Shown here: positions 5,758-43,592 of the stretch, in pieces
Position numbering within the stretch: position 1 is the first letter of the stretch
Layout of the letters: the number at the start of each line of letters is the position of its first letter
DNA from: Cyanobium sp. Cruz-8D1
GTDB lineage: Bacteria > Cyanobacteriota > Cyanobacteriia > PCC-6307 > Cyanobiaceae
DNA: 64,000 nucleotides
Assembly (NCBI RefSeq): GCF_024345975.1
Contig: NZ_JAGQCD010000002.1
Coordinates: 1 to 64,000 of the forward strand
Direction of reading: 5' to 3'
Position numbers and translations under genes: made by a program
Notes under the pieces: generated by a model
Told to the model about the DNA's origin: nothing
The model's input: only the letters and a program-made list of their open reading frames with translations
Databases searched by the model: none

Positions 5758-5778
5758 GCGGCAGGGAGAAGAGCAGCC

Positions 5779-6198: not shown

Positions 6199-6213
6199 GA
6201 TGAGGCCTACCCG

Positions 6214-14010: not shown

Positions 14011-14322
14011 CGGGGAGACGGCGGAGAACCCCACCCCCACCGGCCGGCCGCAGCGCTGTGGCAAGGACGCCCGACATCGGAGGGCGCATGGCCCGATCCT
14101 TGACGCGGCGTGAGGACCGGCCGAGGGATGCGGTGGGTGTGCGCCGGCCCGAAGGCGTCACCAAGCCGTCAGGGCCGAGAGACAAAGCACTGCGAAAAAT
14201 GCCCAGGCAGCCTCAATTCGACTTAGAACAGCAGGTCAAGAGAGGAGGGCAGATAGATCACCAAAAATGATCAGTCTCCGATTTCGACAGCAGGGTATGA
14301 ACTTCAGCGACAATCAAGAGAC

Positions 14323-17300
14323 TCAGACAGCTGTCTTGGTTGAACCGCCATGTTGAGTGACCCTCGGACGACAGCGAACTTTTATTGCACCTTTGCTGAA
14401 TGCGGAGTCCGTCGCTTTGCTTGACCACACATAAGCCTCCCCGGGCTGCAAGTGCGCCATCTTCTCGGGAGTCAAATCACCCAGTGCTGCATTGGCTTTT
14501 TGAATATGTTTGAGCCAGGCTGGGGAATTGAACTTATGCAGGATGATCTGACTGGAAAGCTCAATGAGAGCTACGGGAACTGAAGGTGGGTCCTGGCTTG
14601 CAACCATGACGCTCGTTCCCTTGTGCCGCATTTCTCGGACTACTTCAATTAAGCCACCAACCAGGTCAGGGCTGTCAATGTACTTATGTGCTTCATCAAA
14701 GACCACAAGCTTGTTGAACTTGCTTCCCTCGTAGGTGGCTTCAGCGAAAAGCTGGAGAAGGACAACAAATAGACCAAGAGCTTGGTCCTTTTCCATGAAC
14801 TCATCGCGAAGGTCTACAATAACTAGGCGTCCAGGTCGTATCGCCTCACCTAGATTGACGCTGTCATCGATGAATTCTTGCGCAAGCTCCAAACGACCGT
14901 ATGCCAAATCCTTGATGTGATCTGGCATGCGTGAATCAGCAATCCCATGACGCAACCCCTCCAGGGTGAGCTCATCCCTGAGCTGTTTCATGATCATGTT
15001 GAGTTGTCTGATATAGGTTGCCTGGTTGCCTACAGCTCCCAACAGAAATCTCCAGTGACTCGCCTGGAGCTCGTTGGCAGCAAAGCGAAGCGCACGGACC
15101 TCAATGCCCGGATAGTCTTTTTGTCTTTCATCAAGTTTATCGGATGGGACCAGCAGGAGAACATCGGAGAGAGCTTTTGGCTCGGCACCGTATTTCTCTC
15201 GTAGAAGAGCAATTTGTGCTGCATCACTATTCGCTGCCACCATGGAGGTGAACTCGGGCGCGTAGTCCATGGTTGGGCTGTAATGAAAGATCACTGTTGC
15301 GAGGGGTTGCGGCAACAAGTTGATTCCATCAATAGGCAAAGAAGCCATCTCAGCAACACTACCAAGGGTGTAGCTCTTCCCCCCACCCTGGACACCGAAG
15401 AGGCTGATCGTATGAGTTTGGTTGAGATCAAGCGCAACTTTGCGACCTGATACTTCACCAAGTAAGCCATATTGAGGTGAATCGCCGGTGACACCTAGCA
15501 TCACATCACAGGCCGGTCCACCGTCGCCATGTTTCTGATCTATCACCTGATGCAAGGAAGCAGTACGATTTGGTTCGCCATCTAATGGAATTGTGGGTTC
15601 GCACCCAATAGCAGTCTGAATGGAAACAGGAGATTCGTCAGTCCTATCTATTGGTTGTACGCTAATCCCATCGCTGCTTGTTTCATGCTGAGCAGAAGCA
15701 GAATCAAGAGGAGATCCTCCTGATGGAGTTCCATCTGGTTTTATGGATACCAGTTGGCCTCCTGACCTCGGTGGAAGGTCATCATCATCGTTCTTAGGAG
15801 TTATCTGTGGCTCAAGTGGGAACGCAGTTGAGAGCCCGCTCGATTGCCGCCGAGTTGAAGCCAAGTCCTGCCATGAAACACTGCGATCGCGGGCTTGACC
15901 AAGGAAAGCCGCAGTTTCAAGCTCAGGAATGCTTCGTCTGCGTTGCAAGCGGGTGGTCTCAATATCTGCCGAGGCGATGAGGGGGGCAGCAATTGAGCAA
16001 TTTTGGGCCTCAGTGGCATCATCTTGCTCAGGTGGGGAGGATGCAGCTTCTTCAATAAGCTCACGGATCAGATCTGAGCCGACACGGTGAAACTCAATTC
16101 CATTCTCCTGCTCAATGTCACTCCCTGTTTTCTCAAAATCAAAGATGAGTGCACTCCGGGTAAAGACTAACCGATAACCATCTTCCAGGCTACGAAGGAA
16201 GAATCGTGCTTCTTGAACCGCTGAAGACTCCATGAGATTGTAACGCACCCCGCGATCCAAATAGAACTCAAGTAGCGAGACGAGCTCCTGGCTCTTCACC
16301 AATCGATCCGCGCGGTCTGGATTATTCCTATGAGGATCAAAGTGTAGTGAGAGTACCTGCTCGCTTTGCGCGATCTGCTCGGCGATTTTATCCTTAAGTG
16401 AACTGTAAGCGGCAAGATCTCCAACTGCTGCATAGCATTTGACTTCAACCAAGCGACAGGTGATCGTACGCTCGGCTGCATTAAGGTCAAACAGAGCTAG
16501 GTCAGTGCGTTTGAAGCTGACTTCATCGCCCAGCTCATCAGCAGCTTTCTTGAGACTGCGATAGAGCTCAAGATGGGCATCAAGAGACAGTGTAATCTGG
16601 CTTTGAAGTGCTTCTTGATGCCAGAGATAAATACGGGAAAGGGCGAGGCCTAGGGCTTCGGCACGCTGTGAAGGTGCGGAGATTAGCTTGAGGGCCAATC
16701 GTCCAGAGAGGGATCGCAGCTGATCAAGGATGGCAATTGCATGCCGGCCTTCACTCGGAAGTCCGTACTCATTGAGCACTGGAACAAGCATGGCCTCCAG
16801 CTCGGAAACAGAGCGAGATGTGATGGTCAGCCTGTGACCCACCGCATTACCAATATCTGGAGAGTGATCAATAAGGTAATCAGGACGCTTCCGCTGACCA
16901 CCATGATCAAAAAACTCGATGCCCATGTTGCGGTCGAGAGTGACCACCCAATCGCTGACTTCATGAACCTGATGGAGGAGTGCCCGTTCTTTGGCGTCCA
17001 GGGCCAACCCGATCACCGGGCGCATTGCATCCTCGACTTGGCCGGTAGCAACTGCACTTATGGCGCTGGAGAGAATTGCAGGAACCGTTGAAAGTAGTTC
17101 AGTAAGCTTCTCGGAACCACTGAGAGGGAGAGCCGAGCCATGGCGCGGCGTCCTACACCAAGCAACGGTGCTCTCATCCTCTTTGTACTCCACCTGGTAA
17201 TCCTGGAGAAGACCATGGACTGGAGCAGCAAAGTCTTTAAGCGTGGCTTGTTTAGCCCCAACCTCCTCTGCAGGAAAGAGGTCAAAGAGGAAGGACAAAT

Positions 17301-19977
17301 GGGCCGGGAAGCTCTCGGGTTGAGCACGAAATTCATTTGTGCTACGGATCGCAAGCGCTAGCTTGGGATGAAGGTGATCACCGCTTGAGGTAGTAAATGC
17401 GTCTGCTTCTCGGCCGGCAAGAGTACCGGAGGGCGAGAGCAAGTCTGCTAATCCCTCCCCAACACCAGGAGCATCAGAATCAACAACAAAGATACGGATA
17501 TCATAGGAAATATCTTCGAATGTAGGTTGACCCTGAAGGGTCAGGAGCATATCTGCAAGAATTCCGGCGCGGCCAGGATTAAATGCGTTAATTACCAGCG
17601 TGCTGATGTATGGGTGCTGAATCAAGTATCGCTGCACTCGTGTAGCCAGAGCCTTCCCATCCAACAAAGATCCACCTATGGCGGGTTCGGGCAATCCAAA
17701 AGACGAGCAGACATCACCAAGCAGCCCCCTGGGATCAGGTTCTTGGGCAGGTGCATAGAGCGACCAGAATGGAGCAATGTTGTCGATGGGTATCAACAAC
17801 CGGGTTGCTGATGCCTGGCTGGCCATCGTTGACAAGACAGGAGGGTGCCCGATTGGTACAACTTGATTGAGCAGCGCATCGCGCGTTGGCCCCACAAACT
17901 CTGCTGCGGACTTCTTGGCTGCTTCAACCCAACTCTCTCCAGTTCGAGCCCAAGTGGCCCACCAAAGGACCATTAGGGGGTGTGTTGGAGCAAGTAACGC
18001 TGCCTCACGACGATGACCGCGATAGTCAAAGATCGTCAAGCTGACAGTATCGAGTGTTAGGAAACGCCCTAGTGCAGATATATCGACCCGCGTGTCGCCA
18101 GATGAGGCGCCAGATGCCTGAGACAGTAGCTCCTCCAGCAATTCCCGGTAGGTATCGGCATACTCGATCGCCAGTGCCTGGTTTTCGAGAAAATCAGCCG
18201 CTTGGGTAATGAGCTCTGCACCACCGCTTCGAACGACATCAAACCAGGCCGAGCGGGCTTCAAGGAATCTATTGCAGGAGGCACATGTCGGCCAGATTCC
18301 CTCATTCCCCGTAGGCTTATCAGCTTGACCCATACGCAGCGAAACTCTCCAGGAGAGTGGGCCATGAGATGCTGAAAGAATGGCCTGTTCAAGTGTTTTG
18401 AGAGTCCGTGAGATGGGGATCTGGACATTTCCTTCGTGGCCAAAGGAAATCTCTAGAGTGTCACGACCGGAGCTGTTGGCTTGCCGCCCCTCTGACCAGC
18501 GGGCCCCTTGAGGTCCAATCTTGTTGGTATCTCTGCCATCCTGAACTGAACTGAACCTCAGATAGAGACGTGCGTGCTCAAGGCTGTCATGCTTGGCAAG
18601 GGCCCGTTGAGGTGGTGGTGGGGGCTCATCAAGTTCAGTGACAACGTAGAAAAGCTCACTTTCATTCGGCCGTTGAATGGCGCCATCGCTGTCGTCGACT
18701 GACCAGGGGAGAGGATTGTCCCGTTCATCCACCAATGGGATGAGGTCTCCGTCTTCTGTTTGCGCCAGGATGCGAATAAAATGCCAGCCTTCCTCCCAGT
18801 TGACCTTCGATAGATTGTTAATGTCAATCGTTGCCGAGGTTCGATTCGTGCTCCATGCTTTCTTGCTGCGAGCAAGCCCTACAGGGCCCGTTGCTCTAGA
18901 GATCACTTGAGCGACGAAGCGATCTAAGCCTTGTACTCGTGAAGGATGTGGATTGACCTGGAATCCGACATTGAATTTTCGCAAGCCGCCAGGGCCAACA
19001 ACGAGTATCCTCTCCTCGGGATTGAGTTGCTCTAGCCTTGAATCAGGGGGAGATTCGCCAACCATAGGAAGGCTTGCTTGAACATTGCCAATAAAGATTC
19101 GTTCATGATCGTCTTTGCTCTCCTGAAATTCCCAGCGATGGAATGCAAATTTCCAACAGGCACGATCCAATACGATTCGGCGCGTCCAGTCGTATGGATC
19201 TTCTAAGCCCGTATGGGCAAGAAAGTTGGCAAGTTGCGAGCTGCTTGCTCCCTTCTTGAGACCAAGATCAAGAACACGACCTCTCTCCGTTGCGTGAGAC
19301 CAGGTTAGTCTGCGAACACAGTCGCGATTACGAGTAATCCTGCTCGGTGTTTTGGTGGGATCAAGGAGTAGTTCAAAGTCAGGGACGAGAGCCAGTTCAA
19401 AGAGAGCTGCGCCTACGGCTTCTGGATCTCCGTCATTCAGCTTTGCAGTAAGTAGAAACCGAACGATTGCCAAAGGATCAGCAAATGGCCACGGATCGTC
19501 ACCCTCAAGTCGACGTAAGCCTTCGGCAACTGCACCCTTTATCGGAGACGGCAGCTCCTCTATCAGCCGGCCACGAAGCTGCTTATAGACATCTCCTACA
19601 GGAAGATCTTCAAACGTCGCGACCCCAAAACTATCTTCGGCGGCAGATCGTACCTCGTTGGGGATAAAAACAAGAAGCGGTGGGCGCTGGGATCCGTCTG
19701 AGACCGGGTTGCGAAGTTCAACAAGCTTTGTGGCACTGACTGTCAGCTCAGGCGGTGTGATTGCATGGCCATTCCCAAGAATCACCACTTGAGCTTCCGG
19801 AACTTCTATTCGTAGACGTGCACAGAGACGCGCCATTAAGGCACTATCAAGGTCAGCGATCCGCATACAATGGCCATGGCTCCTAGAGCGCAGAAGGCCC
19901 GCCAACCGAGACAACAACTGGGCCTCTAATTCAGTCGCTACATCATGAGGCTGGACTGTTCGAAGACCTTGGCTCAT
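14323..19977 (-). CDS. mad8: MADS ATP-binding protein MAD8-like, 1884 aa
   Basis: Last gene of the defence operon; its ATG overlaps the upstream stop (ATGA). The C-terminal ~350 residues are a HerA/FtsK-type ATPase: Walker A GVQGGGKS with Lys1534, and Walker B LVVFDEAH with Asp1761-Glu1762. The long N-terminal part is unfamiliar and has a CxxC (PTCASC) near residue 565. Residues ~1140-1182 carry a possible PD-(D/E)xK core: helix LELYRSLKK, Asp1159/1164, then RLVEVKC with Glu1178 and Lys1180. I have not seen that motif described for this protein. The gene is clearly more A+T-rich than the phage genes beside it. Identity rests on size, ATPase type and gene order with MAD1-2-5-6-7. Confidence 0.8.
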   Translation of the reverse strand: MSQGLRTVQPHDVATELEAQLLSRLAGLLRSRSHGHCMRIADLDSALMARLCARLRIEVPEAQVVILGNGHAITPPELTVSATKLVELRNPVSDGSQRPPLLVFIPNEVRSAAEDSFGVATFEDLPVGDVYKQLRGRLIEELPSPIKGAVAEGLRRLEGDDPWPFADPLAIVRFLLTAKLNDGDPEAVGAALFELALVPDFELLLDPTKTPSRITRNRDCVRRLTWSHATERGRVLDLGLKKGASSSQLANFLAHTGLEDPYDWTRRIVLDRACWKFAFHRWEFQESKDDHERIFIGNVQASLPMVGESPPDSRLEQLNPEERILVVGPGGLRKFNVGFQVNPHPSRVQGLDRFVAQVISRATGPVGLARSKKAWSTNRTSATIDINNLSKVNWEEGWHFIRILAQTEDGDLIPLVDERDNPLPWSVDDSDGAIQRPNESELFYVVTELDEPPPPPQRALAKHDSLEHARLYLRFSSVQDGRDTNKIGPQGARWSEGRQANSSGRDTLEISFGHEGNVQIPISRTLKTLEQAILSASHGPLSWRVSLRMGQADKPTGNEGIWPTCASCNRFLEARSAWFDVVRSGGAELITQAADFLENQALAIEYADTYRELLEELLSQASGASSGDTRVDISALGRFLTLDTVSLTIFDYRGHRREAALLAPTHPLMVLWWATWARTGESWVEAAKKSAAEFVGPTRDALLNQVVPIGHPPVLSTMASQASATRLLIPIDNIAPFWSLYAPAQEPDPRGLLGDVCSSFGLPEPAIGGSLLDGKALATRVQRYLIQHPYISTLVINAFNPGRAGILADMLLTLQGQPTFEDISYDIRIFVVDSDAPGVGEGLADLLSPSGTLAGREADAFTTSSGDHLHPKLALAIRSTNEFRAQPESFPAHLSFLFDLFPAEEVGAKQATLKDFAAPVHGLLQDYQVEYKEDESTVAWCRTPRHGSALPLSGSEKLTELLSTVPAILSSAISAVATGQVEDAMRPVIGLALDAKERALLHQVHEVSDWVVTLDRNMGIEFFDHGGQRKRPDYLIDHSPDIGNAVGHRLTITSRSVSELEAMLVPVLNEYGLPSEGRHAIAILDQLRSLSGRLALKLISAPSQRAEALGLALSRIYLWHQEALQSQITLSLDAHLELYRSLKKAADELGDEVSFKRTDLALFDLNAAERTITCRLVEVKCYAAVGDLAAYSSLKDKIAEQIAQSEQVLSLHFDPHRNNPDRADRLVKSQELVSLLEFYLDRGVRYNLMESSAVQEARFFLRSLEDGYRLVFTRSALIFDFEKTGSDIEQENGIEFHRVGSDLIRELIEEAASSPPEQDDATEAQNCSIAAPLIASADIETTRLQRRRSIPELETAAFLGQARDRSVSWQDLASTRRQSSGLSTAFPLEPQITPKNDDDDLPPRSGGQLVSIKPDGTPSGGSPLDSASAQHETSSDGISVQPIDRTDESPVSIQTAIGCEPTIPLDGEPNRTASLHQVIDQKHGDGGPACDVMLGVTGDSPQYGLLGEVSGRKVALDLNQTHTISLFGVQGGGKSYTLGSVAEMASLPIDGINLLPQPLATVIFHYSPTMDYAPEFTSMVAANSDAAQIALLREKYGAEPKALSDVLLLVPSDKLDERQKDYPGIEVRALRFAANELQASHWRFLLGAVGNQATYIRQLNMIMKQLRDELTLEGLRHGIADSRMPDHIKDLAYGRLELAQEFIDDSVNLGEAIRPGRLVIVDLRDEFMEKDQALGLFVVLLQLFAEATYEGSKFNKLVVFDEAHKYIDSPDLVGGLIEVVREMRHKGTSVMVASQDPPSVPVALIELSSQIILHKFNSPAWLKHIQKANAALGDLTPEKMAHLQPGEAYVWSSKATDSAFSKGAIKVRCRPRVTQHGGSTKTAV

Positions 19978-21659
19978 GGCTCCTCTCCAGCTCCAATGGC
20001 GTTAGGCTTAATCCGGTAGCGGGGGGTGACTGTCTGGGAGACATAGGCATCAGAGAGGTCTCGGTAGAAACCAACTTCACGCAGCCGAGCAGTAAAGGCT
20101 GACGCATTTTGACGAAGAGCAGCACGGTCATCAATGCTGGTTGCAGTAAATCCATCTCCCCGGGGAAGGCGATCGATATGGAGGCCATAGCGCTCACGTA
20201 GCCAGGTGAGAAGATCCTCGATGCGCAACTCACCAGTATAGAAAGGATCCGTAGGCTGATTCTGTTTAAGGACAGCCAACTGAAGAAGCACTTCCAGCAA
20301 TCGACTGTCTAGAACAAACCGGCGCGGAGCTCCCTTTGTTCGGCCTTGGGAGAGAAGAGCCCCAGGGCGATTCTTCATCAATAACGAATCCAAGCATTCA
20401 GTAATGTACTGTCGATGAAACTTGCCTCTCAGAGCGGAGAGAATCTCAATATAGGCATCGAAATCTGAAAGTCCAAGGTCGATCACTGCTTTAATCTCTG
20501 GGTCCAGATCAGGTTCACTGACGGCCGACGTATTCTGGACGATTGAATACATACGTGAACCAAAATACTTTTCCAGCTCTGCCTTGTGCAAGGACTCCAG
20601 GAGCTGCAGCGCATCACCTACTCCCAGCTCTTGACCCTTTGCGAGATGAAGCTTTCCGGCCTTCGCCAGAGACTCGCCAAACTCTTCGAGCTTCTTGGCA
20701 GTAAAGCAGCTTTTGACAAAGTTAGGAATGCGTCTGTAGTGGAAGTCTGCACTACGGATTGCTAAGCGAGCGGAAGCGGAACTCGGGCTAACACCTAGGT
20801 CAACAACAAGGCCGATCTGGTATGGGCAGTCACCTTGGGGACTGGAAAAGCTTCGTGGATCCATCGGACAGGAACCGACAGCACAGATCGGATCATCACC
20901 TTTGCGTTTCACTAGGGCCGGCAAGAGTTTGAAGAGCCGCAGGTGATAAAGTGCAAGATGGAAGGAGAGAAGAACTTTGAGATAGTCGACCATGGTCGAT
21001 CTCGGAATATGGTGCTCATAGAACAGCAAGCGCTTAATGTCTTCAGCCAGTAGATCTGCTGATCCGATGCAGAGGGGAGAATAACTCTCCCTACCATTGC
21101 GCGAATCAGGAGCATCTTCTGCCTGATTGGTGAGCCTTAGCAGTGCCTGGGTTTCGACATCCAAGACAGCTGCTCTATCCAGTTGGCCTGTGATCTTGTC
21201 ATGACCCTGGAAGAAGAAGCTCTTCAATTGTTCCAGTGCTGCCTGGCCTGCGCCTTTGCGGGCATGGTAGAGAGATTCATAGAGATGCTGGGCAGCGCCA
21301 TAGTCACGCGAGTGTTTCGCATTTCTAAAGCGATAGGTGAAACCGTGAAGCGGCCTTGGTGCTGCAACGACTTCGTTGGTCTTTCCTCTGTTCACCATGT
21401 CCATGAGGTGCGTCTGAAACCAACGCTCGACGATCTCTCGATGCTGGGCAAAACCGGTGAACCACTCGGGATGGTCAAGAAATTCATCAACGAATGCCTT
21501 CACGGACAACTCATGACGCCGTTTGAGTCGGCTGGCAAAACCGCTATGCGCTAGTCGTGCGAACAGGGCTGTCAGCACACGGTCCATCTCGATCTGCTTG
21601 AAATCGAGATAGGAGATCTTTTTGTTATTGAATGTTCGATCCCTGCTCGACAACGTCAT
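19974..21659 (-). CDS. mad7: MADS protein MAD7-like, 561 aa, unknown function
   Basis: No enzymatic motif is recognised. The protein is largely helical. Residues ~265-285 contain CAVGSCPMD ... GDCPYQ, a possible metal site. The C-terminal ~100 residues look like a winged helix-turn-helix (LRIEDLLTWLRERYGLHID, then ASAFTARLREVGFYRDL), suggesting DNA or protein binding. It is coupled to both neighbours by ATGA overlaps, between the kinase gene and the giant ATPase gene, the place MAD7 holds in MADS as I recall the system. Function in the family is unknown. Confidence 0.7.
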   Translation of the reverse strand: MTLSSRDRTFNNKKISYLDFKQIEMDRVLTALFARLAHSGFASRLKRRHELSVKAFVDEFLDHPEWFTGFAQHREIVERWFQTHLMDMVNRGKTNEVVAAPRPLHGFTYRFRNAKHSRDYGAAQHLYESLYHARKGAGQAALEQLKSFFFQGHDKITGQLDRAAVLDVETQALLRLTNQAEDAPDSRNGRESYSPLCIGSADLLAEDIKRLLFYEHHIPRSTMVDYLKVLLSFHLALYHLRLFKLLPALVKRKGDDPICAVGSCPMDPRSFSSPQGDCPYQIGLVVDLGVSPSSASARLAIRSADFHYRRIPNFVKSCFTAKKLEEFGESLAKAGKLHLAKGQELGVGDALQLLESLHKAELEKYFGSRMYSIVQNTSAVSEPDLDPEIKAVIDLGLSDFDAYIEILSALRGKFHRQYITECLDSLLMKNRPGALLSQGRTKGAPRRFVLDSRLLEVLLQLAVLKQNQPTDPFYTGELRIEDLLTWLRERYGLHIDRLPRGDGFTATSIDDRAALRQNASAFTARLREVGFYRDLSDAYVSQTVTPRYRIKPNAIGAGEEP

Positions 21660-24600
21660 GCGGATACCTCCTGCCTGGATGGGAGGTGCATCATCTCGAG
21701 ACGACCATCATGATGTCGCTGAATTTTATAGAAGTCCTGACCAGTCGTTGTCAGCAGGACCTCTTGATAGGGTGCGGACCCTAAGATATTCTTGAAGACA
21801 GCAAGACTTAAGTAATAGCCCTGTTCCTCTTCGATGCTTGGCCGGTAGCCGCGATTAAGACGTTCCAGCATCTCAAAGATATCAAGATTGATCAGGAGTT
21901 CAGCTTCTTGATCTCCATCCTTGAATTGCAGCGCAAGACCTTCAGGCATGTGCTCGATAAAGCGAGCCTGGCTGGCCGAATCCTTTGAGGAAAGCTTGAA
22001 TTGATCTGACTTATAGAGACGGTAGGAACGGACCGTGCCTCGTTCAACTTGTCGTACCTGCAGCGCCAGGCTGTTGCCAAGTCGAGTGGGTTCGAGTAAA
22101 CCTTCACCTCGATTGATGGCATGGAGAACATCTTGAAGGGCGAGTTCTGTGCTTCGTTGACCCCGCATCATGGCCAGCATCCGCTCTGCAGAGCGGTATG
22201 GAAGCATTGAAGACCAGCTGGTGTCGCGCCTTTCGAAATAGATACGTCGACGAGCCATGGAGAGGAAATGCCGGTGTGCAACGGCTCTGCTTGTTGAAGG
22301 CTTGCCAGTGAAATCACGTGGCAAGGTCTCGTAGAGCGTGCTCAGTACTTCATGGTCATAGCTGCCGCGCCCTGAAAAACTGAACCGGCTCTGATCCATA
22401 GCCGGACTGATGAAGTCGAGACCTCGATCCAGGCGCGGGTCGGCTGCAGATCCCACATCGACTCCCTTAAGCAACTGCAGAAGCCGATCAGCAGTACCAG
22501 TATCCGCAGCCATCCAGGAATTGAAATAAAAACCAGCAGCGATCAACTCTCGCTTCCCTTCGCTGTAGAGAGAATGGATCTCTGTACAATCTCGTGCGGA
22601 GCTCAACATGAATGACAAGGCTGAACGCAGATCACGAATGGTGATATGCAGTCGACCGCGAAGATGACTCAGGGTGTAGAGCGTCTTGAGACGCTCAATA
22701 ACTTGAGGCGCTGCTGTGCGGTCTTGAAATGTCTGGGCGTTGTGGTGGACGTAGCACTTGTCTTTGAGATCGCAGCTCTGGCAAGCCTGCCAGTACTTCG
22801 GTTTGACCAGAGCCCGTAGTTGGCGCTCCAAGATCGAATTGTCGTCGGAAATAGGACTTGCGACGACACTGCGCCAATTCAGATTGACGACAGCGATGTC
22901 ATGTTTATCCTCACCTGTACGCAGACTTTCTTCTACCACTGCTAACAAGGCTGGGAACTCGTCCCTGGCGGTCTTGAGGAAGTCAACCAACCGACCTTCA
23001 TTGATCGCGATCAGGCGTGTCTCATCCGTTGGCCACGCATCTGGATTAGTGCCTGAGAATGGTCTAAAGAACTCATAGAGGACATCGTCATTCTTGCGTT
23101 CTTCTTCATCTTGGGATCCGTCGTAGTTGGTTATGAACGTGCGGCCTGTGGTGGAGAATCGACGACCGTTGGGCAGCGGATCGCTGGATTGGAGCTGAGC
23201 CTGGGTTCCCGCCTCCACTTCCAGCTGCTGTAAGAATGCTGTCTTCCCATCACCAGCATTCCCGGTGATCAACACCAGCTTGAATTTACCCGCTATGACC
23301 TCGGGTATTAGGTTCTCGTCCAGCAGCGTCGGGATGTAGGTGAGGCGTCCGAGTTCATTCAGCCCTCGTGTCCCCGCATTGGTCTTGCGGCTCTGGCTGT
23401 AAAGGCTCTGGAGGTAGCTGACGAATGAATTGGTATTGGGCTGGACAGATCCAGCGAGGTCGGGGCCCAAAAGGGTGCCAGCCGTTTCTGTGGCAGGTTC
23501 CCGACGGGCCCGAGTGATTGGCTGCAGAGCTTCGAGCAGTTCTGAAGCCGAAGCGAATCGTTCTGACCGCTTCGGGGCAATGGCTTTTTGAACAAGAACA
23601 GTGAGTTCGGGTACCAGATCGCTGCCCCCAGGCCCATCTCGAGGATCAGGCGCAGGGGTACCCGGCGGTGGTGCGCTACCTTTCCATGGATAGGAGCCTG
23701 TCAAAGCCTCATAGATGGTCAGGCCAAGGGCATAGAGGTCGCGGTCAGCCAGCTCACTGGGGGATGGTGTTTCTGATAGGTCAAGGTCTGGAGGGAGGTA
23801 TCGGTGGGAGCCCCCTCCATGGCCGTTGTCTTCCGAGCGGACGGAGACGTTGAAGTCAGTGATCTTTGCCCCCTTAACGGTCCAGAGGAGGTTGTGGGGC
23901 TTGATGTCGCAGTGATAAAGGCCCTCACGGTGGAGGTGAACCAGCCCTTCGGCCACTTGCCGATACAGCAGCAGGACATCTTCGGCATCAAGACGATCGT
24001 CGCGGATTAGATCCGCAACGTCTTCGCCCTGGACGTACTCAAAGAGGATGTAGGGAGGACCATCCTCCCCCGGGAGCACATTGGCATCGATCACCCGCAC
24101 GACATGGGGGTGTTCAGGGAGGCGGACGAGGGTCTTGTACTCCTTCTTGAGTCGCTCCAGGGTTGAATGCCGATCGCGCAAGATCAGCTTCAGAGCCCTG
24201 GTGACATCGCCAAGGGTATCCACCACCTTGTAGACCACACTGAAGCTGCCACGGCCGATCAGCTCCTGCACCTCAAGCTTGCCGGCCAGCAGGGTGCCCT
24301 TGGGCACCTGGGCCCAGTCAATTGGAGCTACCGGCACCGTTTCAGGCTGCGCAGCCGCAGGCTCATCGTTGCTTCCAGCTTCCGTACCAGAGAAAAGAGG
24401 CTGCAGTGCTGAATCAAGGGCAAGGCCTGCGGCTGTGGCTGACAGCCGTTGATCCGGGTCAAAGGTGCACAGCGTCTGCAGCCACTGATCGAGCGCCGAG
24501 GGGATCTCGGATCGCAGCGTTGATGGATTGACCTGGAAGGTCGCGCTGCGATCAAAGAGTTCGGTGATCGAGGTGAAGGCCCGCTGGCCAGTGAACAACT

Positions 24601-25792
24601 CGTAGAGCACCACCCCCGCCGAGAACACATCAGAAGCGGGGCTGGCATTCGCAGGTTCCCGCCAGGCCTCTGGGGCGACGTAGGCGGGATCAACCTCCTC
24701 AACCACCTGATCAGCGATGGTGAGGCTGCGATCGGTGCCAGCCCTGGCGTGCTCAAAACCCGTCAGGCGGATGTGGCCATCCACCCCGAACAGGATGGTG
24801 CTGGGGGAGAGGTTGCGGTGAACCACTTGGTGGGAATGGCAGAAGGTCAGGGCTTCGAACAGCTCCCGAGCGATCCTGAGCTTCTGATCCAGGGTGAGGG
24901 AAAGCCGGGGCTTGTCGATATGAATCCGTAAGGCCTGTCCTGAAACATCGTCAGTGACCAGGACGTACCTGTCTTCCCCCTCAGTGGCAAAGAAGTTCTT
25001 GGCACCAGCGATCAGCGGATGCCCCGGCAGACGGTTGAGCGCGCGGAAGGCGTTGGCAATCCGGTCTTTCTGCTGCTGGCGTTGCTGTGCATCTGGAAGG
25101 TAGGGATCCGCCTGATAGACACGCAGCAGTGCCGTGCCCCCCTTGATGCCGGCAAAGGTGTTGACGGCTCGATACTCGGTGAAGGAGTCGCTGCCACCGA
25201 GACGTTCAATCACTTGCCAGTCTCCGAGCAGGACCGGCCCACTTCGCTTTTGGGCGGCTCCAACCAGAGCTTTGCGGATCAAGCCCTGCAGAGCAGTGAT
25301 GTTGAGATCAAAGCGGGCAGGAATCCGGTGGGTGTTCTGGAAGAATGCAGCAGCCTTTCTCAAGGTGGTCACATTCTCAGCGTCTCGACCACCTTGATCG
25401 GAAAGATGGGCATCGGGCGCCGAGAGGAGAACGACTGCATCAACGAACACGCCATCCAGATTTCGCTGACCAGGCTGGGATGCTGTAAGAAGGCCCTTCA
25501 GGGACCGGGCATGGCCGCGGAGCTTGAGCAGCGGCGATGTGAATGGGGTACGACCCTCGGGATGCCACTTGGCTCCATAGACATCAATCAGGCCTCGTGT
25601 CCCTTTGACATCCACCAGATAAAGCGCATGGGGGGCCAGAACGGCGATATCTACTTCGAAGGTTTCATCTCTGCGCTGAATCTCGAAGTTGTGAAAGATC
25701 AAGTAGCCATTCGGCAGGTGATCCCGCAGATGGGCAATCGCCACACGTTCGGCATCGTTGACGGGCTCGCCGATGGGGACCACGGTAGCCAT
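21656..25792 (-). CDS. mad6: MADS kinase MAD6-like (PglW-type): NERD + pseudokinase + kinase + P-loop
   Basis: 1378 aa. Residues ~10-120 are a NERD domain (VDIAVLAPHALYLVDVKGT). Two protein-kinase folds follow. The first (~195-480) has HRN at 325-327 instead of HRD and GFE in place of DFG, so it is probably a pseudokinase. The second (~510-790) keeps IGRGSFSVVYK, an ALK lysine, HCD with Asp629 and DFN. Residues ~835-1350 form a P-loop NTPase-like region (GNAGDGKT, Lys850) with CQSCDLKDKC near 1003. The architecture resembles PglW-type kinases, which is how I place it as the MADS kinase. Its start overlaps the mad5 stop (TAATG). Confidence 0.85.
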   Translation of the reverse strand: MATVVPIGEPVNDAERVAIAHLRDHLPNGYLIFHNFEIQRRDETFEVDIAVLAPHALYLVDVKGTRGLIDVYGAKWHPEGRTPFTSPLLKLRGHARSLKGLLTASQPGQRNLDGVFVDAVVLLSAPDAHLSDQGGRDAENVTTLRKAAAFFQNTHRIPARFDLNITALQGLIRKALVGAAQKRSGPVLLGDWQVIERLGGSDSFTEYRAVNTFAGIKGGTALLRVYQADPYLPDAQQRQQQKDRIANAFRALNRLPGHPLIAGAKNFFATEGEDRYVLVTDDVSGQALRIHIDKPRLSLTLDQKLRIARELFEALTFCHSHQVVHRNLSPSTILFGVDGHIRLTGFEHARAGTDRSLTIADQVVEEVDPAYVAPEAWREPANASPASDVFSAGVVLYELFTGQRAFTSITELFDRSATFQVNPSTLRSEIPSALDQWLQTLCTFDPDQRLSATAAGLALDSALQPLFSGTEAGSNDEPAAAQPETVPVAPIDWAQVPKGTLLAGKLEVQELIGRGSFSVVYKVVDTLGDVTRALKLILRDRHSTLERLKKEYKTLVRLPEHPHVVRVIDANVLPGEDGPPYILFEYVQGEDVADLIRDDRLDAEDVLLLYRQVAEGLVHLHREGLYHCDIKPHNLLWTVKGAKITDFNVSVRSEDNGHGGGSHRYLPPDLDLSETPSPSELADRDLYALGLTIYEALTGSYPWKGSAPPPGTPAPDPRDGPGGSDLVPELTVLVQKAIAPKRSERFASASELLEALQPITRARREPATETAGTLLGPDLAGSVQPNTNSFVSYLQSLYSQSRKTNAGTRGLNELGRLTYIPTLLDENLIPEVIAGKFKLVLITGNAGDGKTAFLQQLEVEAGTQAQLQSSDPLPNGRRFSTTGRTFITNYDGSQDEEERKNDDVLYEFFRPFSGTNPDAWPTDETRLIAINEGRLVDFLKTARDEFPALLAVVEESLRTGEDKHDIAVVNLNWRSVVASPISDDNSILERQLRALVKPKYWQACQSCDLKDKCYVHHNAQTFQDRTAAPQVIERLKTLYTLSHLRGRLHITIRDLRSALSFMLSSARDCTEIHSLYSEGKRELIAAGFYFNSWMAADTGTADRLLQLLKGVDVGSAADPRLDRGLDFISPAMDQSRFSFSGRGSYDHEVLSTLYETLPRDFTGKPSTSRAVAHRHFLSMARRRIYFERRDTSWSSMLPYRSAERMLAMMRGQRSTELALQDVLHAINRGEGLLEPTRLGNSLALQVRQVERGTVRSYRLYKSDQFKLSSKDSASQARFIEHMPEGLALQFKDGDQEAELLINLDIFEMLERLNRGYRPSIEEEQGYYLSLAVFKNILGSAPYQEVLLTTTGQDFYKIQRHHDGRLEMMHLPSRQEVSA

Positions 25793-27183
25793 TAGGTGGC
25801 TTCCTCAATGGCACGCTCTATCAGAGATCGCGCTTTCTTCTCGGCTTCTGATGCCTTGTCGCGCAAGTCAATTGCACTATCTACAATCATTGAAATCTTG
25901 TGCCGCACGTCCTCGTGTGGCCATGGGATTGAAATGGCTTTTAGCCTGCCTGCATCCATATGAGGAATGCTTGATCCCGCAGCCTCACGAGAAAGCAACG
26001 TTACACCTTCGGGCGTTGATAGCAGGCCATATATATAGCCCGCGTCCTTAGGGTCTATTGATGTAATGCGTACCATATTATTTGAAACAGCGAAACCGTC
26101 CAGTTGAGCCCCAACGTAGACGCTTCTGCCAATCAGTCCGCCAAGCTGACCGGCCTCCTGAACAAGAATTGTGCCTTGCTTAACCTGAAGTGCATTCTCG
26201 GCCGCTACCCGCTTCATAAGGTATCTATCAGACATGGCGGATACCTGAAAGACGTCCCCACCTGTGATGTAAGGTACGCCATATGAAGGGTCGCTTGCGT
26301 AGCGACGTTTAAAGATTCCCGGAATAAAGACATCGGCAACCTCGCTTAAAAGGCAATGCTGGCAATTTGTCGCAGTGTCAAATGATCTGCGAGCTTTGTG
26401 AGATATCGGGCTGTAGTAAAAGGCGTCGAGGCGAGCCTGAAGGCTTCTTGATCTAACAACGGCGCAAGGAGTTTCACCTGCAGGCCCTTCTTCGTCTTTG
26501 CCCAGTATGTCCTTGACACTAGAAACTGCCTGCTCTAAACGCTTTGCAGCATCGGATCGATTCCCAGATGCAAGCTCCACTAAACGACTAACTTGCTCTT
26601 CTAAGTCTATGCCCAGCCGTGGTACTGGCAGACCAGCAATGTGCTCCGGCTCGATTGACTGAATGATGGATCCATATGTTCCCGATGTCACCAGCGGGAC
26701 GCCAAACTTGCTGCTTAGAAAGGCATAGAGGTAACCAGGAGGGATTTTTGCCTCATCGGGCACAACTCTCATGACATGCTCTGAACACGCTAGTCCGTCC
26801 ATGTCTGGACGGGAATAAACCATTCGTCCAATGGTTCCTGACCGCGTTATTAGCGTCCAGCCCTTTCTCAGCAAGAACCTCGGATTTCTCCTGACTTGCC
26901 TTTTGGAGATGAGTGGCAGCCCTGATAGATCTGCAGCCAGGATAGAGCTACTGCTTAAGAAAGGAACGCCGAGATCGGAATCCTCTACCCAAGATCTCGA
27001 CTCGCGTCCAGCGTGGTAAATGCCGTCAATACCATTTGAGCATAGCGATGCAAGTTTCTCCTTTGGATAGGGCAACTCCTCTAGCTTGATTCTGGCTTCG
27101 AGAGCCCCAGACATATAGGGATTGCAGTCCAGCCGCAACCCATCACGGGAAATCCAAGAACTGGGGATGCTTTTTGCCTTCAT
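25792..27183 (-). CDS. mad5: MADS specificity subunit MAD5-like (HsdS type), 463 aa
   Basis: Typical type I S-subunit layout: target-recognition domain 1 (~1-185), a conserved helical spacer (~188-225, EEQVSRLVELASGNRSDAAK), target-recognition domain 2 (~240-425), and a C-terminal coiled coil (~428-463, ISMIVDSAID ... AEKKARSLIERAIE). It should direct the adjacent methyltransferase to a bipartite DNA site. It begins 2 nt after the mad2 stop and ends in a 1-nt overlap with mad6. The two recognition domains are among the most A+T-rich coding DNA in the window, consistent with recent exchange. Confidence 0.85.
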   Translation of the reverse strand: MKAKSIPSSWISRDGLRLDCNPYMSGALEARIKLEELPYPKEKLASLCSNGIDGIYHAGRESRSWVEDSDLGVPFLSSSSILAADLSGLPLISKRQVRRNPRFLLRKGWTLITRSGTIGRMVYSRPDMDGLACSEHVMRVVPDEAKIPPGYLYAFLSSKFGVPLVTSGTYGSIIQSIEPEHIAGLPVPRLGIDLEEQVSRLVELASGNRSDAAKRLEQAVSSVKDILGKDEEGPAGETPCAVVRSRSLQARLDAFYYSPISHKARRSFDTATNCQHCLLSEVADVFIPGIFKRRYASDPSYGVPYITGGDVFQVSAMSDRYLMKRVAAENALQVKQGTILVQEAGQLGGLIGRSVYVGAQLDGFAVSNNMVRITSIDPKDAGYIYGLLSTPEGVTLLSREAAGSSIPHMDAGRLKAISIPWPHEDVRHKISMIVDSAIDLRDKASEAEKKARSLIERAIEEAT

Positions 27184-27185
27184 GT

Positions 27186-29258
27186 CTATGGCCGAGCATG
27201 TTGAGCCAGAAATGCAAGATAAGCCTCAGCAATTCTGGGTAAATCGTCGTCCAAAGTCTTTTCCTTGCGTCGCAACACACGCACCACGGACTCCCCAGCC
27301 ACCTTCACTCGCTCGCGATATTCCTTCTCGACGATTAACTCCTCACCGTCAGGTCCTCGCTTGTAAAGCGTGTTGCCCCTTCGATCAAAGCCAACCTTTT
27401 CGGCAACAGCCATGAAGACCGGATAGTCGACCTGCTGGCCGAGATCCTCGGCACGGATCTCATCGGCAGTCTTTTTCTTCAGGAAAAGCAGGCTGGTCAG
27501 GATGTTGACGTTAGCTTCCACGATGAACACCTCTACGGGCAGATCAATGCTGGCCAATACCCACGAGTGCCTCAGGATCCACCATCGGATGTACTCATCG
27601 CCTGGGTTGCCGAGGATCCCATCAGGTAAAACGATGCCCATCCTTCCTCCTGGCTTCAGCCAGGCCAGGGCACGCTCGATGAACAGTACCTCTGGTGCCA
27701 CACTTCCCTGGAGCCGTCCGGTGTTCCGGAATCCACCATCCTCAGTGCGCTCCCAGATGTAGGCAAGCTCGTAGTGCCTCAGGATATTAGGGTCCGTAAT
27801 CGGGATATCCGATCCAAAGGGCGGATTGGTCATCACCACATCCATCGTGCCCAGATCTGCCTTCCCCTTGGCCTCCGCAACGCCCTGCAGATGGCCTGCA
27901 GGGAACTCGAGTGAATTCATGCAGAAGACCTGGGCCTGTCCGTTGCTTGCCATCAGAATGTTCATCTGGGCAGCTCGGACCAGAAAAGGATCAAAGTCAG
28001 CCCCGAACAATTGATGTTCAGCAAAATGGATCAGCTGTTCTTGGATCGAGAGAAATTCTTCTGTTGACTCATCTCCACTCGATACATGAGCTTTGGCGTG
28101 AAGAAGACGGTCCACATGTTTCAGCGTTGACACCAGGAATCCGCCTGTTCCACAGGCCATGTCCATGACGCGCTCATGGGGCCTTGGATCCAGGATCTCT
28201 ACAACCAGATCCACAGGTCCCCTTGGTGTGAAGTACTGACCCCGGTCGCCGCGGATATTGTGCTTCACCAGCTCTTGGTAAGCAGCACCTTTGGCATCTA
28301 AGGCAGTGCGGCCCAGGTCGTACTTGGCGAGCTCACCCACAATGAAGGCCAGGGCCCGATCCGACAGTTGCAGCCTTGGCGGGTTGTCGCGGAAGACTGT
28401 GTCTTTGTATTTTTCGGCGACTTCATCGACGAGCTGGGTGACCCGCTCACGGATCGCCTTCTGCCCCTCAGGTTCAAACTGTTCATCGACCCATTGCTTT
28501 TTCCCATTCACCTCCTTCTCAAAGGCTCCCACCCAGAAGCGAGCCGGCTGATCCTTGGGGCGACGCTCATCATGCAGCTTCGCAAAGATCAGATAGAGGA
28601 ATTGCCAGAAGGCTGCATCCTTCGGCATCCCTTCGTTGCCGTGAATATAGTTATGACAGCGTTTGAACGCCGTCAGCAGCATATCTCGGTCGGCGCGCCG
28701 CAGCCTTTGATCAGATGCGACAGTACGACTCCCCAGGGTTCCATCTGCAGGAGGCCAGTCGCCTATGGGCTTGAACTTAGTGTCAAATCTTGAGACTTCC
28801 TTCTCAAAGAAGTACATGTCTAGGCCATTGGTCCAGAGACCCCACTTGCAATTTGCCGCCTCTTCCTCTCCCATGGCGGCGTAGAGCAAGCCGAACTCCT
28901 TTTCGGCTTGCTTGTGGTCGCGCATTCTGTAGGCGCCTTTGCTTCCTGTCTTCGGCTCCTTATCGCAGATGACGATCCGCTCAAGGTAATCAAGATTCTT
29001 GGGCTGGCCCGCTTCGAAGATGGCAATGTCAATCTTTTTGCTGCGTCCTTCCACCTTCATCTTGAAGTCCGGCACCATGTCATCGACTGAAATGCCATAC
29101 TCATGAAATAGAGCCCTTGCAATCCGCTGCCGTACCTGTTCTTTTGGCGTGTCCTTGACTGGGTTGCCAGTGATGTAGTCGAGGAGCTTGCCCTCCTCCA
29201 GGGAATCAATCTCCTCTTTCGTCTGGGTCGAAAGATCGTCCAGTTCCAGGTCAGGCAT
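27186..29258 (-). CDS. mad2: MADS DNA N6-adenine methyltransferase MAD2-like (HsdM type), 690 aa
   Basis: HsdM-family methyltransferase with an extended N-terminus. The AdoMet motif DMACGTGGF begins at Asp366 and the catalytic NPPFG begins at Asn478. The N-terminal ~350 residues include an HSDR_N-like segment (KIDIAIFEAG, ERIVICDKEPKT) and the HsdM helical domain. It modifies adenine at the site chosen by the S subunit, presumably marking self DNA. It overlaps the HTH gene upstream by 8 nt. No HsdR gene is present next to it, which separates this locus from an ordinary type I R-M system. Confidence 0.88.
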   Translation of the reverse strand: MPDLELDDLSTQTKEEIDSLEEGKLLDYITGNPVKDTPKEQVRQRIARALFHEYGISVDDMVPDFKMKVEGRSKKIDIAIFEAGQPKNLDYLERIVICDKEPKTGSKGAYRMRDHKQAEKEFGLLYAAMGEEEAANCKWGLWTNGLDMYFFEKEVSRFDTKFKPIGDWPPADGTLGSRTVASDQRLRRADRDMLLTAFKRCHNYIHGNEGMPKDAAFWQFLYLIFAKLHDERRPKDQPARFWVGAFEKEVNGKKQWVDEQFEPEGQKAIRERVTQLVDEVAEKYKDTVFRDNPPRLQLSDRALAFIVGELAKYDLGRTALDAKGAAYQELVKHNIRGDRGQYFTPRGPVDLVVEILDPRPHERVMDMACGTGGFLVSTLKHVDRLLHAKAHVSSGDESTEEFLSIQEQLIHFAEHQLFGADFDPFLVRAAQMNILMASNGQAQVFCMNSLEFPAGHLQGVAEAKGKADLGTMDVVMTNPPFGSDIPITDPNILRHYELAYIWERTEDGGFRNTGRLQGSVAPEVLFIERALAWLKPGGRMGIVLPDGILGNPGDEYIRWWILRHSWVLASIDLPVEVFIVEANVNILTSLLFLKKKTADEIRAEDLGQQVDYPVFMAVAEKVGFDRRGNTLYKRGPDGEELIVEKEYRERVKVAGESVVRVLRRKEKTLDDDLPRIAEAYLAFLAQHARP

Positions 29259-29511
29259 TGGTGCTGGTCTCCCCTAGCTCTTCGTCGGTACTGCTGGCTG
29301 CCCCTCCTGCTCGTACCCAGTCGTCCACGTCGTTCTTCTTGAACTTCCAGAAGCGACCGACGCGATACCCCGGCATCCCCTTGGTGGTGACCCAGGCATA
29401 GACAGTGTCCTTGCTGACGCCCAGGTAGTCGGCCATCTCGTCGACGGCGAGCCAGCGGTCTTCGATGGCAGAGCTGTCCAGGGCATTTCCGCAGAGTTCC
29501 CAGCCCTGCAT
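29251..29511 (-). CDS. mad1: MADS helix-turn-helix protein MAD1-like, 86 aa
   Basis: Small MerR/excisionase-type HTH protein. Residues ~18-65 hold the motif WLAVDEMADYLGVSKDTVYA, followed by a wing (GYRVGRFWKFKKNDVDDWV). It is the first gene of the operon, overlapping mad2 by 8 nt, with 131 bp separating it from the Mrr-type gene upstream. An autoregulatory role on the operon promoter in that gap is likely by position; the sequence alone does not show the operator. Confidence 0.8.
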   Translation of the reverse strand: MQGWELCGNALDSSAIEDRWLAVDEMADYLGVSKDTVYAWVTTKGMPGYRVGRFWKFKKNDVDDWVRAGGAASSTDEELGETSTNA

Positions 29512-29642
29512 AGCAGCGGCACCCTCGCGGCCGCAACGGTTCTGACACGATTCGACCCTGTTTGGCCGGATCTGGTCGGATTCAGCGGGATCCTTCCTTG
29601 CCCGTGGCGGTCTGGCCAGTGCCCGGCCTGCGAGGCCCAGGG

Positions 29643-37032: not shown

Positions 37033-37115
37033 GACGGTGGACGCAATGGTGTGAGGAGGAAGGAGAAGGGGCCCGGCTGCACCACCGGAACCCCACATGC
37101 GGGGGGCTATGGCCG

Positions 37116-43400: not shown

Positions 43401-43592
43401 TGGTGAAAAGTCGAAGGGCAACAAAGAGAAGCTGAATTCCTTGGATCCTTAGCCCCCTTGATTGGTAAATAGCGAGAATTCCAGACATGGCTTGGTCGGG
43501 GTTCGCAGTTGCGGAGGCTGGGGCTGAGGAGTCCTGGGGGCGGCCGCTGGCCGCCAACGTCCTTCCGCCTGGCCTTGGAACGAGCTTCCGGC
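43401..43592. other. Non-coding gap after att site 2
   Basis: About 190 bp with no gene, repeat or hairpin that I can support. It is the first sequence beyond the inferred island border. Confidence 0.4.

What the first reader, a model, noticed from the sequence alone, without database searches (positions are those of the whole stretch)
14323..29511. Six-gene MADS-type defence operon in a picocyanobacterium
Seen: HTH, HsdM-like, HsdS-like, NERD/kinase/P-loop, unknown wHTH-tailed protein, and 1884-aa HerA-type ATPase, all leftward and coupled by 1-8-nt overlaps or a 2-nt gap. Known: this matches MAD1, MAD2, MAD5, MAD6, MAD7 and MAD8 of the methylation-associated defence system as I recall it. 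MAD3 and MAD4, which I place between MAD2 and MAD5, are absent with no remnant DNA (2 nt between mad2 and mad5). Inferred: a minimal or variant MADS subtype.
Basis: partly seen in the sequence, partly recalled or inferred. Interest (0 to 1): 0.85.

Follow-up and report, generated by a model that had tools for sequence, protein, structure and literature searches.

The report
Compact MADS with Dnd-type restriction half
A cyanobacterium carries a horizontally acquired six-gene version of the known MADS phage-defence system, and comparison with relatives suggests that its DNA-attacking half is the same machine used by sulfur-marking Dnd/Ssp defences, here keyed to DNA methylation instead.

Summary
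Six leftward, tightly coupled genes (14323-29511) each pass the curated NCBIfam cut-off for MAD1, 2, 5, 6, 7 or 8. MAD3 and MAD4 are absent from the operon and, above cut-off, from the 3.97-Mb genome. The operon is 51-59% G+C inside 63-73% G+C DNA, so probably acquired.

The MAD3/MAD4-free layout is recurrent, not one clade: of 74 loci, 21 have MAD3-MAD4 between mad2 and mad5, 24 (window included) do not, 19 are dual-methyltransferase loci and 10 are truncated. The nearest relative keeps MAD3-MAD4; one locus keeps a fused remnant. MAD3-MAD4 looks detachable; MAD2/6/7/8 co-evolve as a core.

Main new point: MAD6 C-terminus, MAD7 and MAD8 are homologues, in the same order, of SspF-SspG-SspH, and the MAD7 model matches the DndG crystal structure at Z 21.4. 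I read MADS as a DndFGH/SspFGH-type restriction complex keyed to N6-adenine methylation. Homology is supported; activity is inferred. The founding MADS paper was not readable here, so priority is uncertain.

The parts
29251..29511 (-). mad1: HTH_17/excisionase-type helix-turn-helix protein, probable regulator
   Evidence: NF047737 86.4 bits, cut-off 80; HTH_17 56.6 bits
27186..29258 (-). mad2: HsdM-like N6-adenine DNA methyltransferase; ACGTGG at 368 and NPPF at 478
   Evidence: NF047738 975 bits, cut-off 720; motifs
27184..27185 (.). 2-nt mad2-mad5 junction, where MAD3-MAD4 sits in 21 of 74 surveyed loci
25792..27183 (-). mad5: HsdS-like specificity subunit with two target-recognition stretches
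   Evidence: NF047740 503.6 bits, cut-off 400; Methylase_S in 2 stretches
21656..25792 (-). mad6: NERD nuclease-like + pseudokinase + kinase + SspF/DndF-like P-loop half
   Evidence: NF047741 763.5 bits, cut-off 460; hhalign
25424..25756 (-). MAD6 NERD domain (residues 13-123)
   Evidence: Pfam NERD 58.3 bits; E46, D48, K63 in 67 of 69
24440..25087 (-). MAD6 first kinase domain (236-451), HRN in place of HRD: likely pseudokinase
23675..24274 (-). MAD6 second kinase domain (507-706), catalytic residues kept
   Evidence: Pkinase 202.6 bits; K535, D629, N634, D646 in 69 of 69
21671..23341 (-). MAD6 C-terminal half (about 818-1374), homologous to SspF/DndF; P-loop 844-851
   Evidence: hhalign probability 98.8, E 5.5e-17; PADLOC SspF 102 bits; P-loop 69 of 69
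19974..21659 (-). mad7: DndG/SspG homologue, predicted DNA-binding subunit
   Evidence: NF047733 663.1 bits, cut-off 410; Z 21.4 to DndG 7exx; hhalign to SspG 97.0
14323..19977 (-). mad8: SspH/DndH homologue
   Evidence: NF047742 229.7 bits, cut-off 175; hhalign about 595-1225 to SspH 96.3
16813..17721 (-). MAD8 methyltransferase-like Rossmann domain (about 753-1055), no [NDS]PP[FYW] motif: probably inactive
   Evidence: Z 13.5 over 167 residues; motif absent from the whole protein in 63 of 64, and outside this domain in the other
16375..16509 (-). MAD8 PD-(D/E)xK-type nuclease motif, D-x18-E-x-K: R1157, D1159, E1178, K1180, Q1201
   Evidence: invariant in 64 of 64; a similar motif with x20 at a like position in 4 of 4 SspH. 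The fold of this domain was not identified by itself
15373..15396 (-). MAD8 Walker A (1528-1535) of the C-terminal HerA/FtsK-type ATPase
14201..29500 (.). low-G+C segment that coincides with the operon

Best explanation
The operon is a horizontally acquired MADS-type defence system without the MAD3-MAD4 cassette. MAD2 (methyltransferase) and MAD5 (specificity) mark host DNA at a split site with N6-methyladenine. MAD6C-MAD7-MAD8 form a DndFGH/SspFGH-type restriction complex: MAD7 binds DNA and helps to read the mark, MAD8 translocates (HerA/FtsK ATPase) and cuts or nicks DNA (PD-(D/E)xK motif), and MAD6 is the P-loop subunit with a fused NERD-pseudokinase-kinase control or back-up part. DNA without the mark is damaged. 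MAD1 probably regulates the operon. MAD3-MAD4 (AAA_21 ATPase plus a small partner) is an optional add-on layer, which this lineage most likely lost. Shown here: homology, gene order, conservation of catalytic residues, the MAD3/4 distribution. Inferred: methylation, nicking, translocation, sensing, the role of the kinase, and loss rather than gain in this lineage.
For: Equivalog cut-offs passed for six proteins. Profile-profile: MAD6C-SspF 98.8%, MAD7-SspG 97.0%, MAD8-SspH 96.3%, against 0.1-1.2% for ten controls (seven non-cognate pairs, three reversed profiles). MAD7 model (pLDDT 87.1, pTM 0.90) matches DndG 7exx at Z 21.4 over 401 residues of a 440-residue chain, next row 3.7. Nuclease-motif residues invariant in 64 of 64 MAD8. 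A natural bridge: an SspC-SspD...SspG-SspH-SspA locus whose SspF is fused to a MAD6/PglW-like kinase part (L020). The host genome has no SspD or DndC match at E<=1e-5, so a sulfur mark is unlikely and the adjacent methyltransferase is the obvious partner. MAD2, MAD6 and MAD8 distances track MAD7 at r 0.98-0.99; MAD3 0.76, MAD4 0.63. Loss: the sister locus L026 keeps MAD3-MAD4, and the L051 remnant joins MAD3's first five residues to MAD4's last ~49.
Against: Foldseek alone found no PDB match for MAD7 at E<=0.001; DndG appeared only in the second-look aligner, at 13% identity and rmsd 6.3. The nuclease slice of MAD8 alone (1100-1300) gave 2.7% and the HerA slice (1480-1884) 1.1% against SspH, while MAD8 1-1100 alone gave 92.5%, so the significant MAD8 signal lies mostly before the nuclease. 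The motif spacing differs (x18 in MAD8, x20 in SspH). The solved-structure search hit HerA-type ATPases only weakly (best E 4e-4). A DndH profile hit MAD8 at only 16.7 bits. The Ssp profiles rest on three or four sequences each. Nothing here shows methylation, nuclease activity or defence.
Confidence: 0.75

Rival explanations
1. The operon is a decaying or methylation-only remnant of MADS: without MAD3-MAD4 it no longer restricts.
For: Two genes of the eight-gene system are gone. Two other MAD3/4-free loci have broken genes: L019 (mad2 and mad5 in pieces) and L018 (mad2 in two ORFs).
Against: All six window ORFs are open and their catalytic residues intact. The MAD3/4-free layout recurs in 24 of 74 loci, including three plasmids and eight Bacteroidota genomes, which decay alone would not maintain. 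Broken genes also occur with MAD3-MAD4 (mad8 of L043).
Confidence: 0.12
2. MAD6-8 is an independent effector; the likeness to SspFGH/DndFGH is shared generic folds (P-loop, wHTH, HerA).
For: 13% identity of MAD7 to DndG; weak scores of the MAD8 nuclease and HerA slices.
Against: Three subunits match collinearly over hundreds of residues, in the same gene order, while seven non-cognate pairs and three reversed controls fail. L020 carries the intermediate fusion.
Confidence: 0.07
3. It is a branch of BREX/Pgl, because MAD6 resembles PglW.
For: PglW 241 bits (PADLOC) and 219.7 bits (NCBIfam) over the NERD-kinase part.
Against: Far below the PglW cut-off of 990. In the complete NCBIfam lists no PglZ or BrxC appears; the other BREX-named matches are BREX_6_MTaseX to MAD2 (16.3 bits) and BrxF to MAD6 (11.5 bits). 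The C-terminal half of MAD6 is SspF-like.
Confidence: 0.03
4. A MAD3-MAD4 function is supplied in trans by the HEC-01-type ATPase on contig C37.
For: The 448-aa gene is the only match of the genome to the curated MAD3 model at E<=1e-10: 63 bits.
Against: It scores 562 bits to HEC-01A and 73 to mad3, far below the MAD3 cut-off of 420. It lies on another contig, and no MAD4 match exists.
Confidence: 0.03

Closest known systems
MADS, methylation-associated defence system (Maestri et al. 2024, doi 10.1016/j.chom.2024.07.005; paper not held, recalled)
   Same: MAD1, 2, 5, 6, 7, 8 above curated cut-offs, in order and on one strand
   Different: MAD3 and MAD4 absent; mad2 runs into mad5 with a 2-nt gap
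SspABCD-SspFGH (Wang et al. 2021, PMC8092258; passages read)
   Same: F-G-H subunits homologous in order; a D-x20-E-x-K motif in SspH resembles the D-x18-E-x-K of MAD8
   Different: Self mark is phosphorothioate from SspABCD there, a methyltransferase pair here; SspF of L021 and L022 is only 629 and 620 aa, without room for a kinase part, which L020 has
DndFGH (Rakesh et al. 2024, PMC10853773; abstract, passages and sections 12, 19, 21, 22, 25 read)
   Same: MAD7 fold = DndG; MAD8 order (methyltransferase-like, nuclease motif, HerA/FtsK) as described for DndH; some DndF carry NERD plus two kinases as MAD6 does
   Different: That paper calls DndFGH standalone, without an inbuilt modification module; here an N6-adenine methyltransferase and S subunit are operon partners
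BREX type 2 / Pgl
   Same: NERD-pseudokinase-kinase start of PglW
   Different: No PglZ or PglY/BrxC match in the complete NCBIfam lists; PglW cut-off not met
PARIS (AriA), HEC-01 and AbiLi ATPases (for MAD3)
   Same: AAA_21/AAA_15-type ATPase
   Different: Concerns only the cassette that the window lacks; MAD3 has its own curated family

Membership tests
MADS | MAD2 methyltransferase and MAD5 specificity subunit | tested here: met
   975/720 and 503.6/400 bits
MADS | MAD6, MAD7 and MAD8 | tested here: met
   763.5/460, 663.1/410, 229.7/175 bits
MADS | MAD1 helix-turn-helix protein | tested here: met
   86.4/80 bits, narrow
MADS (eight-gene form) | MAD3 and MAD4 present | tested here: not met
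   No match over cut-off in the genome; 2-nt junction. Filed as a variant, not as the eight-gene form
MADS | N6mA methylation and phage restriction | not testable with these tools
   needs sequencing and infection assays
DndFGH/SspFGH restriction module | F subunit core | tested here: met
   MAD6C vs SspF 98.8%, E 5.5e-17
DndFGH/SspFGH restriction module | G subunit | tested here: met
   Z 21.4 to DndG 7exx; SspG 97.0%
DndFGH/SspFGH restriction module | H subunit as a whole: homology to SspH, with methyltransferase-like domain and HerA/FtsK ATPase | tested here: met
   SspH 96.3%; methyltransferase-like fold Z 13.5; HerA-type weak matches
DndFGH/SspFGH restriction module | REase domain of the H subunit | tested here: inconclusive
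   D/E/K motif invariant in 64 of 64 and a like motif in SspH with x20 spacing, but the slice alone scored 2.7% and its fold was not searched alone
Dnd/Ssp phosphorothioate system | DndC or SspD sulfur-transfer enzyme | tested here: not met
   0 matches at E<=1e-5 in the own genome
BREX type 2 / Pgl | PglW over curated cut-off | tested here: not met
   219.7 of 990 bits
BREX type 2 / Pgl | PglZ and BrxC/PglY encoded by the operon | tested here: not met
   absent from the complete NCBIfam and Pfam lists of the six proteins; PADLOC lists for MAD2, MAD5 and MAD6 were capped at 25; the rest of the genome was not searched for them

The most novel reading that the evidence does not exclude
MADS is not a separate kind of defence. 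It is the methylation-keyed branch of the DndFGH/SspFGH superfamily: one translocating nuclease machine that evolution has coupled to different self marks (phosphorothioate or N6-methyladenine), with the mad2-mad5 slot taking interchangeable extra layers (MAD3-MAD4, a second methyltransferase, Schlafen/AlbA-type or Fic genes). The window is the bare core.
Probability: 0.7. Interest if true: 0.65.

Novelty: new variant of a known kind. Interest (0 to 1): 0.52.

Why it matters
A 2026 review counts MADS among systems that restrict DNA by unknown mechanisms (PMC12904381, passages read). Homology to DndFGH, for which DNA nicking and translocation are reported (PMC11662687, passages read), gives a concrete and testable mechanism and candidate catalytic residues. 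It also suggests that the restriction module can be re-keyed from a sulfur mark to a methyl mark, and that the six-gene form is a small natural core suited to reconstitution.

Tried and rejected
Rejected: BREX/Pgl membership; MAD3 in trans from the C37 gene; MAD3/4 absence as one clade.

Led nowhere: a DndH profile over 146 cyanobacterial genomes rang nowhere, including in the controls, so it says nothing. No direct MAD-Dnd sequence profile was built for lack of DndFGH sequences. Foldseek alone found nothing for MAD7 at E<=0.001. The PDB sequence search gave no credible relative for MAD7 (one match, E 0.055). No clean empty site was found: matches of four same-genus genomes to the window end at 43584-43592; in three the fetched flank runs on for 15 kb or more with only 51-76-bp matches just beyond, in the fourth (G408) the contig ends 126 bp later; the window begins at the start of its contig. 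No tRNA gene in the window. No MAD7 match in the phage collection at E<=1e-5.

Negative or weak sub-results: MAD8 slices 1100-1300 and 1480-1884 against SspH gave 2.7% and 1.1%. Nuclease-motif spacing is x18 in MAD8 and x20 in SspH.

Counts: the 74 loci are 65 from genome contigs, 3 viral, 4 plasmid, 1 from a genome search, plus the window; the 10 truncated loci are in the 74 but not classified. Labels were set by hand. The 24 'neither' loci include L051 (remnant), L052 (MAD4-MAD3 inverted downstream of mad8), L070 (inside the dual clade, second methyltransferase gone) and L019 and L018 (broken genes). L057, whose second methyltransferase is reduced to a 121-aa weak match, is among the 19 dual loci. 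The scan pattern came from five MAD7 sequences and will miss distant forms.

Literature: the listings of searches, and the passages or sections that I opened in ten papers, showed no description of a MAD3/4-free MADS or of a MADS-DndFGH homology. Nearest: PMC13321033 (passages) says that Halococcus 'DMS_other' genes resemble genes of MADS, Shango, phosphorothioation and BREX systems. The founding paper was not held, so it may already say either; its content is recalled, not read.
Full report
Observation. Each passes the curated NCBIfam equivalog cut-off for MAD1, 2, 5, 6, 7 or 8, and PADLOC's mad models match the same six. MAD1 passes narrowly (86.4 against 80 bits).

MAD3/MAD4. With NCBIfam models the own genome (3.97 Mb, rated 100% complete) has no MAD3 over cut-off (best 63 of 420 bits) and no MAD4 match at E<=1. 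The broader PADLOC mad3 model matched 132 places at E<=1; it also rings in all 14 control genomes, so these look like general ABC-type ATPases. The MAD3 candidate on C37 is HEC-01A at 562 bits.

Acquisition. Two-kb bins from 14001 to 30000 are 51-59% G+C; the other bins are 63-73%. In 200-bp steps the drop comes between the 14001 and 14201 steps (0.70 to 0.49), with recovery at 29401-29601 (0.63, 0.67). Of the five same-genus genomes listed in the phylum sample, only the window's own has a MAD7 hit, and 2 of 386 sampled genomes (the own one included) pass the MAD7 cut-off. Matches of four same-genus genomes to the window end at 43584-43592; three of them continue for 15 kb or more without further long matches, the fourth contig ends there. 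So the operon lies in what looks like a variable region, but I found no clean empty site.

Survey. An alignment of five MAD7 sequences found 65 relatives in genome contigs (84,980 species genomes) and 3 in viral contigs. With four plasmid loci, one genome-search locus and the window there are 74. By gene order (labels set by hand and tabulated): 21 carry MAD3-MAD4 between mad2 and mad5; 24 carry a single methyltransferase without them there; 19 are dual-methyltransferase loci; 10 are truncated. A MAD1 match upstream of a MAD2-5-6-7-8 order, as in the window, was seen in four others (L031, L032, L033, L079; in L031 within a longer mechanical ORF, in L079 430 nt upstream). In most other MAD3/4-free loci my MAD1 profile found no match, which may be a limit of the profile.

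Tree. In a MAD7 tree (74 rows, IQ-TREE) the window pairs with L026, a Thiosymbion MAG with MAD3-MAD4 (support 100/100). The MAD3/4-free label needs 11 changes, at least 10 forced by starred branches; 0 of 500 shuffles were as low, so the label is clustered but not one clade. Presence and absence have therefore switched repeatedly. Long branches among the Bacteroidota and other rows make their deep placement unsure. The direction is shown in one case: in Aeromonas popoffii (L051) a 58-aa ORF after mad2 begins with MAD3's first five residues and ends with MAD4's last ~49.

Core and cassette. Among the 22 loci with MAD3-MAD4 (L052 included), pairwise distances of MAD2 (20 loci usable), MAD6 (22) and MAD8 (21) correlate with MAD7 at r 0.98-0.99; MAD3 0.76, MAD4 0.63, MAD5 0.60. 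MAD5's low value fits specificity-domain exchange. In Leptolyngbya (L052) MAD4-MAD3 sits inverted downstream of mad8. The mad2-mad5 slot also holds a Schlafen/AlbA_2-HATPase gene in L026 and a Fic gene in L057; L093 has an AlbA_2-type gene between mad5 and mad6. MAD3 of L015 is an AAA_21 ATPase with HEC-01A (112 bits) and AriA (88.6 bits) similarity; MAD4 has a sub-threshold DUF4276 match in one of three tested. A guard-like role is inference.

Restriction half. PADLOC hinted at SspF in MAD6 (102 bits), SspG in MAD7 (29.8) and DndH in MAD8 (16.7). Four cyanobacterial loci that gave weak MAD7 hits supplied Ssp sequences. PADLOC identified F, G and H of L020 and F and G of L021; H of L021 and the L022 and L023 proteins were assigned by position and size. 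Profile-profile comparison gave 98.8% (MAD6 775-1378 vs SspF, E 5.5e-17), 97.0% (MAD7 vs SspG, E 1.1e-10) and 96.3% (MAD8 vs SspH, E 1.8e-9); ten control comparisons gave 0.1-1.2%. MAD8 1-1100 alone gave 92.5%, but its nuclease slice 2.7% and HerA slice 1.1%. The Ssp profiles rest on three (F, G) or four (H) sequences, and these E-values are for single pairs, not for a database. The collinearity of three neighbouring subunits is still hard to explain otherwise.

Structures. The MAD7 model (38 sequences, pLDDT 87.1, pTM 0.90) had no Foldseek match at E<=0.001, but the second-look aligner gave DndG 7exx at Z 21.4, rmsd 6.3, 401 residues of a 440-residue chain, 13% identity, next row 3.7. The large rmsd may reflect moved domains. 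The MAD8 560-1290 model (26 sequences, pLDDT 85.5) contains a SAM-methyltransferase-like domain (Z 13.5 over 167 residues; four Foldseek matches at E<=0.001, the descriptions naming COG1565/putative methyltransferase proteins). MAD8 has no [NDS]PP[FYW] motif in 63 of 64. The domain is followed by R1157, D1159, E1178, K1180 and Q1201, invariant in 64 of 64, and a HerA/FtsK-type ATPase. That is the order described for DndH (PMC10853773, section 21). SspH has a similar motif, with x20 instead of x18 between D and E, in 4 of 4; I did not check that the two motifs fall in the same alignment columns.

Bridge. In L020 an SspC-SspD-...-SspF-SspG-SspH-SspA locus has a 1430-aa SspF: residues 802-1421 match SspF, and the part before matches mad6 (247.6 bits, best stretch 494-723) and PglW (197.9 bits, 60-790). 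Its NERD domain was not scanned by itself. Rakesh et al. report NERD and tandem kinases fused to some DndF, but the text has no mention of MADS, SspFGH, HsdM or HsdS and calls DndFGH standalone. The 2026 BREX paper (PMC12839542, passages), which cites that work as its authors' own, has no mention of MADS.

Self mark. The own genome has no SspD or DndC match at E<=1e-5, so a phosphorothioate mark is unlikely. MAD2 keeps NPPF and the ACGTGG motif, and MAD5 has two Methylase_S stretches. The simplest model is that MAD2-MAD5 methylation is the self mark for the MAD6-8 complex.

Verdict. The operon is a real, apparently intact, probably acquired MADS variant without MAD3-MAD4. As a member it is a variant of a known system. 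What it works like is, most probably, a DndFGH-type nuclease-translocase keyed to N6-methyladenine.

Noticed in passing
L053-L071, L078, L091 (e.g. L056:417-4435): A widespread clade of MADS loci (19 of 74) has two tandem methyltransferases. In the 18 loci with an intact second copy, that copy carries NPWF instead of NPPF and SGTGTF instead of CGTGGF: perhaps an altered or inactive partner subunit.
   Followed up: partly
L020:4455-8747: SspF fused to a MAD6/PglW-like kinase part inside a phosphorothioation locus of a cyanobacterium.
   Followed up: yes
window 29643-30701 (-): A gene with an Mrr-type nuclease domain (PDC-S02, 484 bits; Mrr_cat) ends 131 nt upstream of mad1 on the same strand, in host-like G+C, and is overlapped upstream by a TPR gene: a candidate second defence cluster.
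   Followed up: partly
window 4537-7260 (-): A 907-aa ORF without Pfam, NCBIfam or PADLOC match (at E<=1e-5) is multi-copy: its DNA recurs nearly whole at 82-88% identity in five other places of the genome and in other same-genus genomes.
   Followed up: no
window 40026-42392 (+): TOTE conflict-system primase-helicase protein (AEP-TOTE 330 bits), left of the synteny break at 43.6 kb.
   Followed up: no
window 11279-12583 (-) and 36040-37236 (-): Phage-lysozyme and Rad52-type genes, which may point to phage-derived DNA around the operon.
   Followed up: no
L026:470-2437, L057:2947-4068, L093:3898-5667: Schlafen/AlbA_2-HATPase and Fic genes inserted into MADS operons between mad2 and mad5 or between mad5 and mad6.
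   Followed up: partly
window 43584-43592: Matches of four same-genus genomes to the window end at nearly the same point (one contig ends 126 bp later): a possible variable-region boundary.
   Followed up: partly
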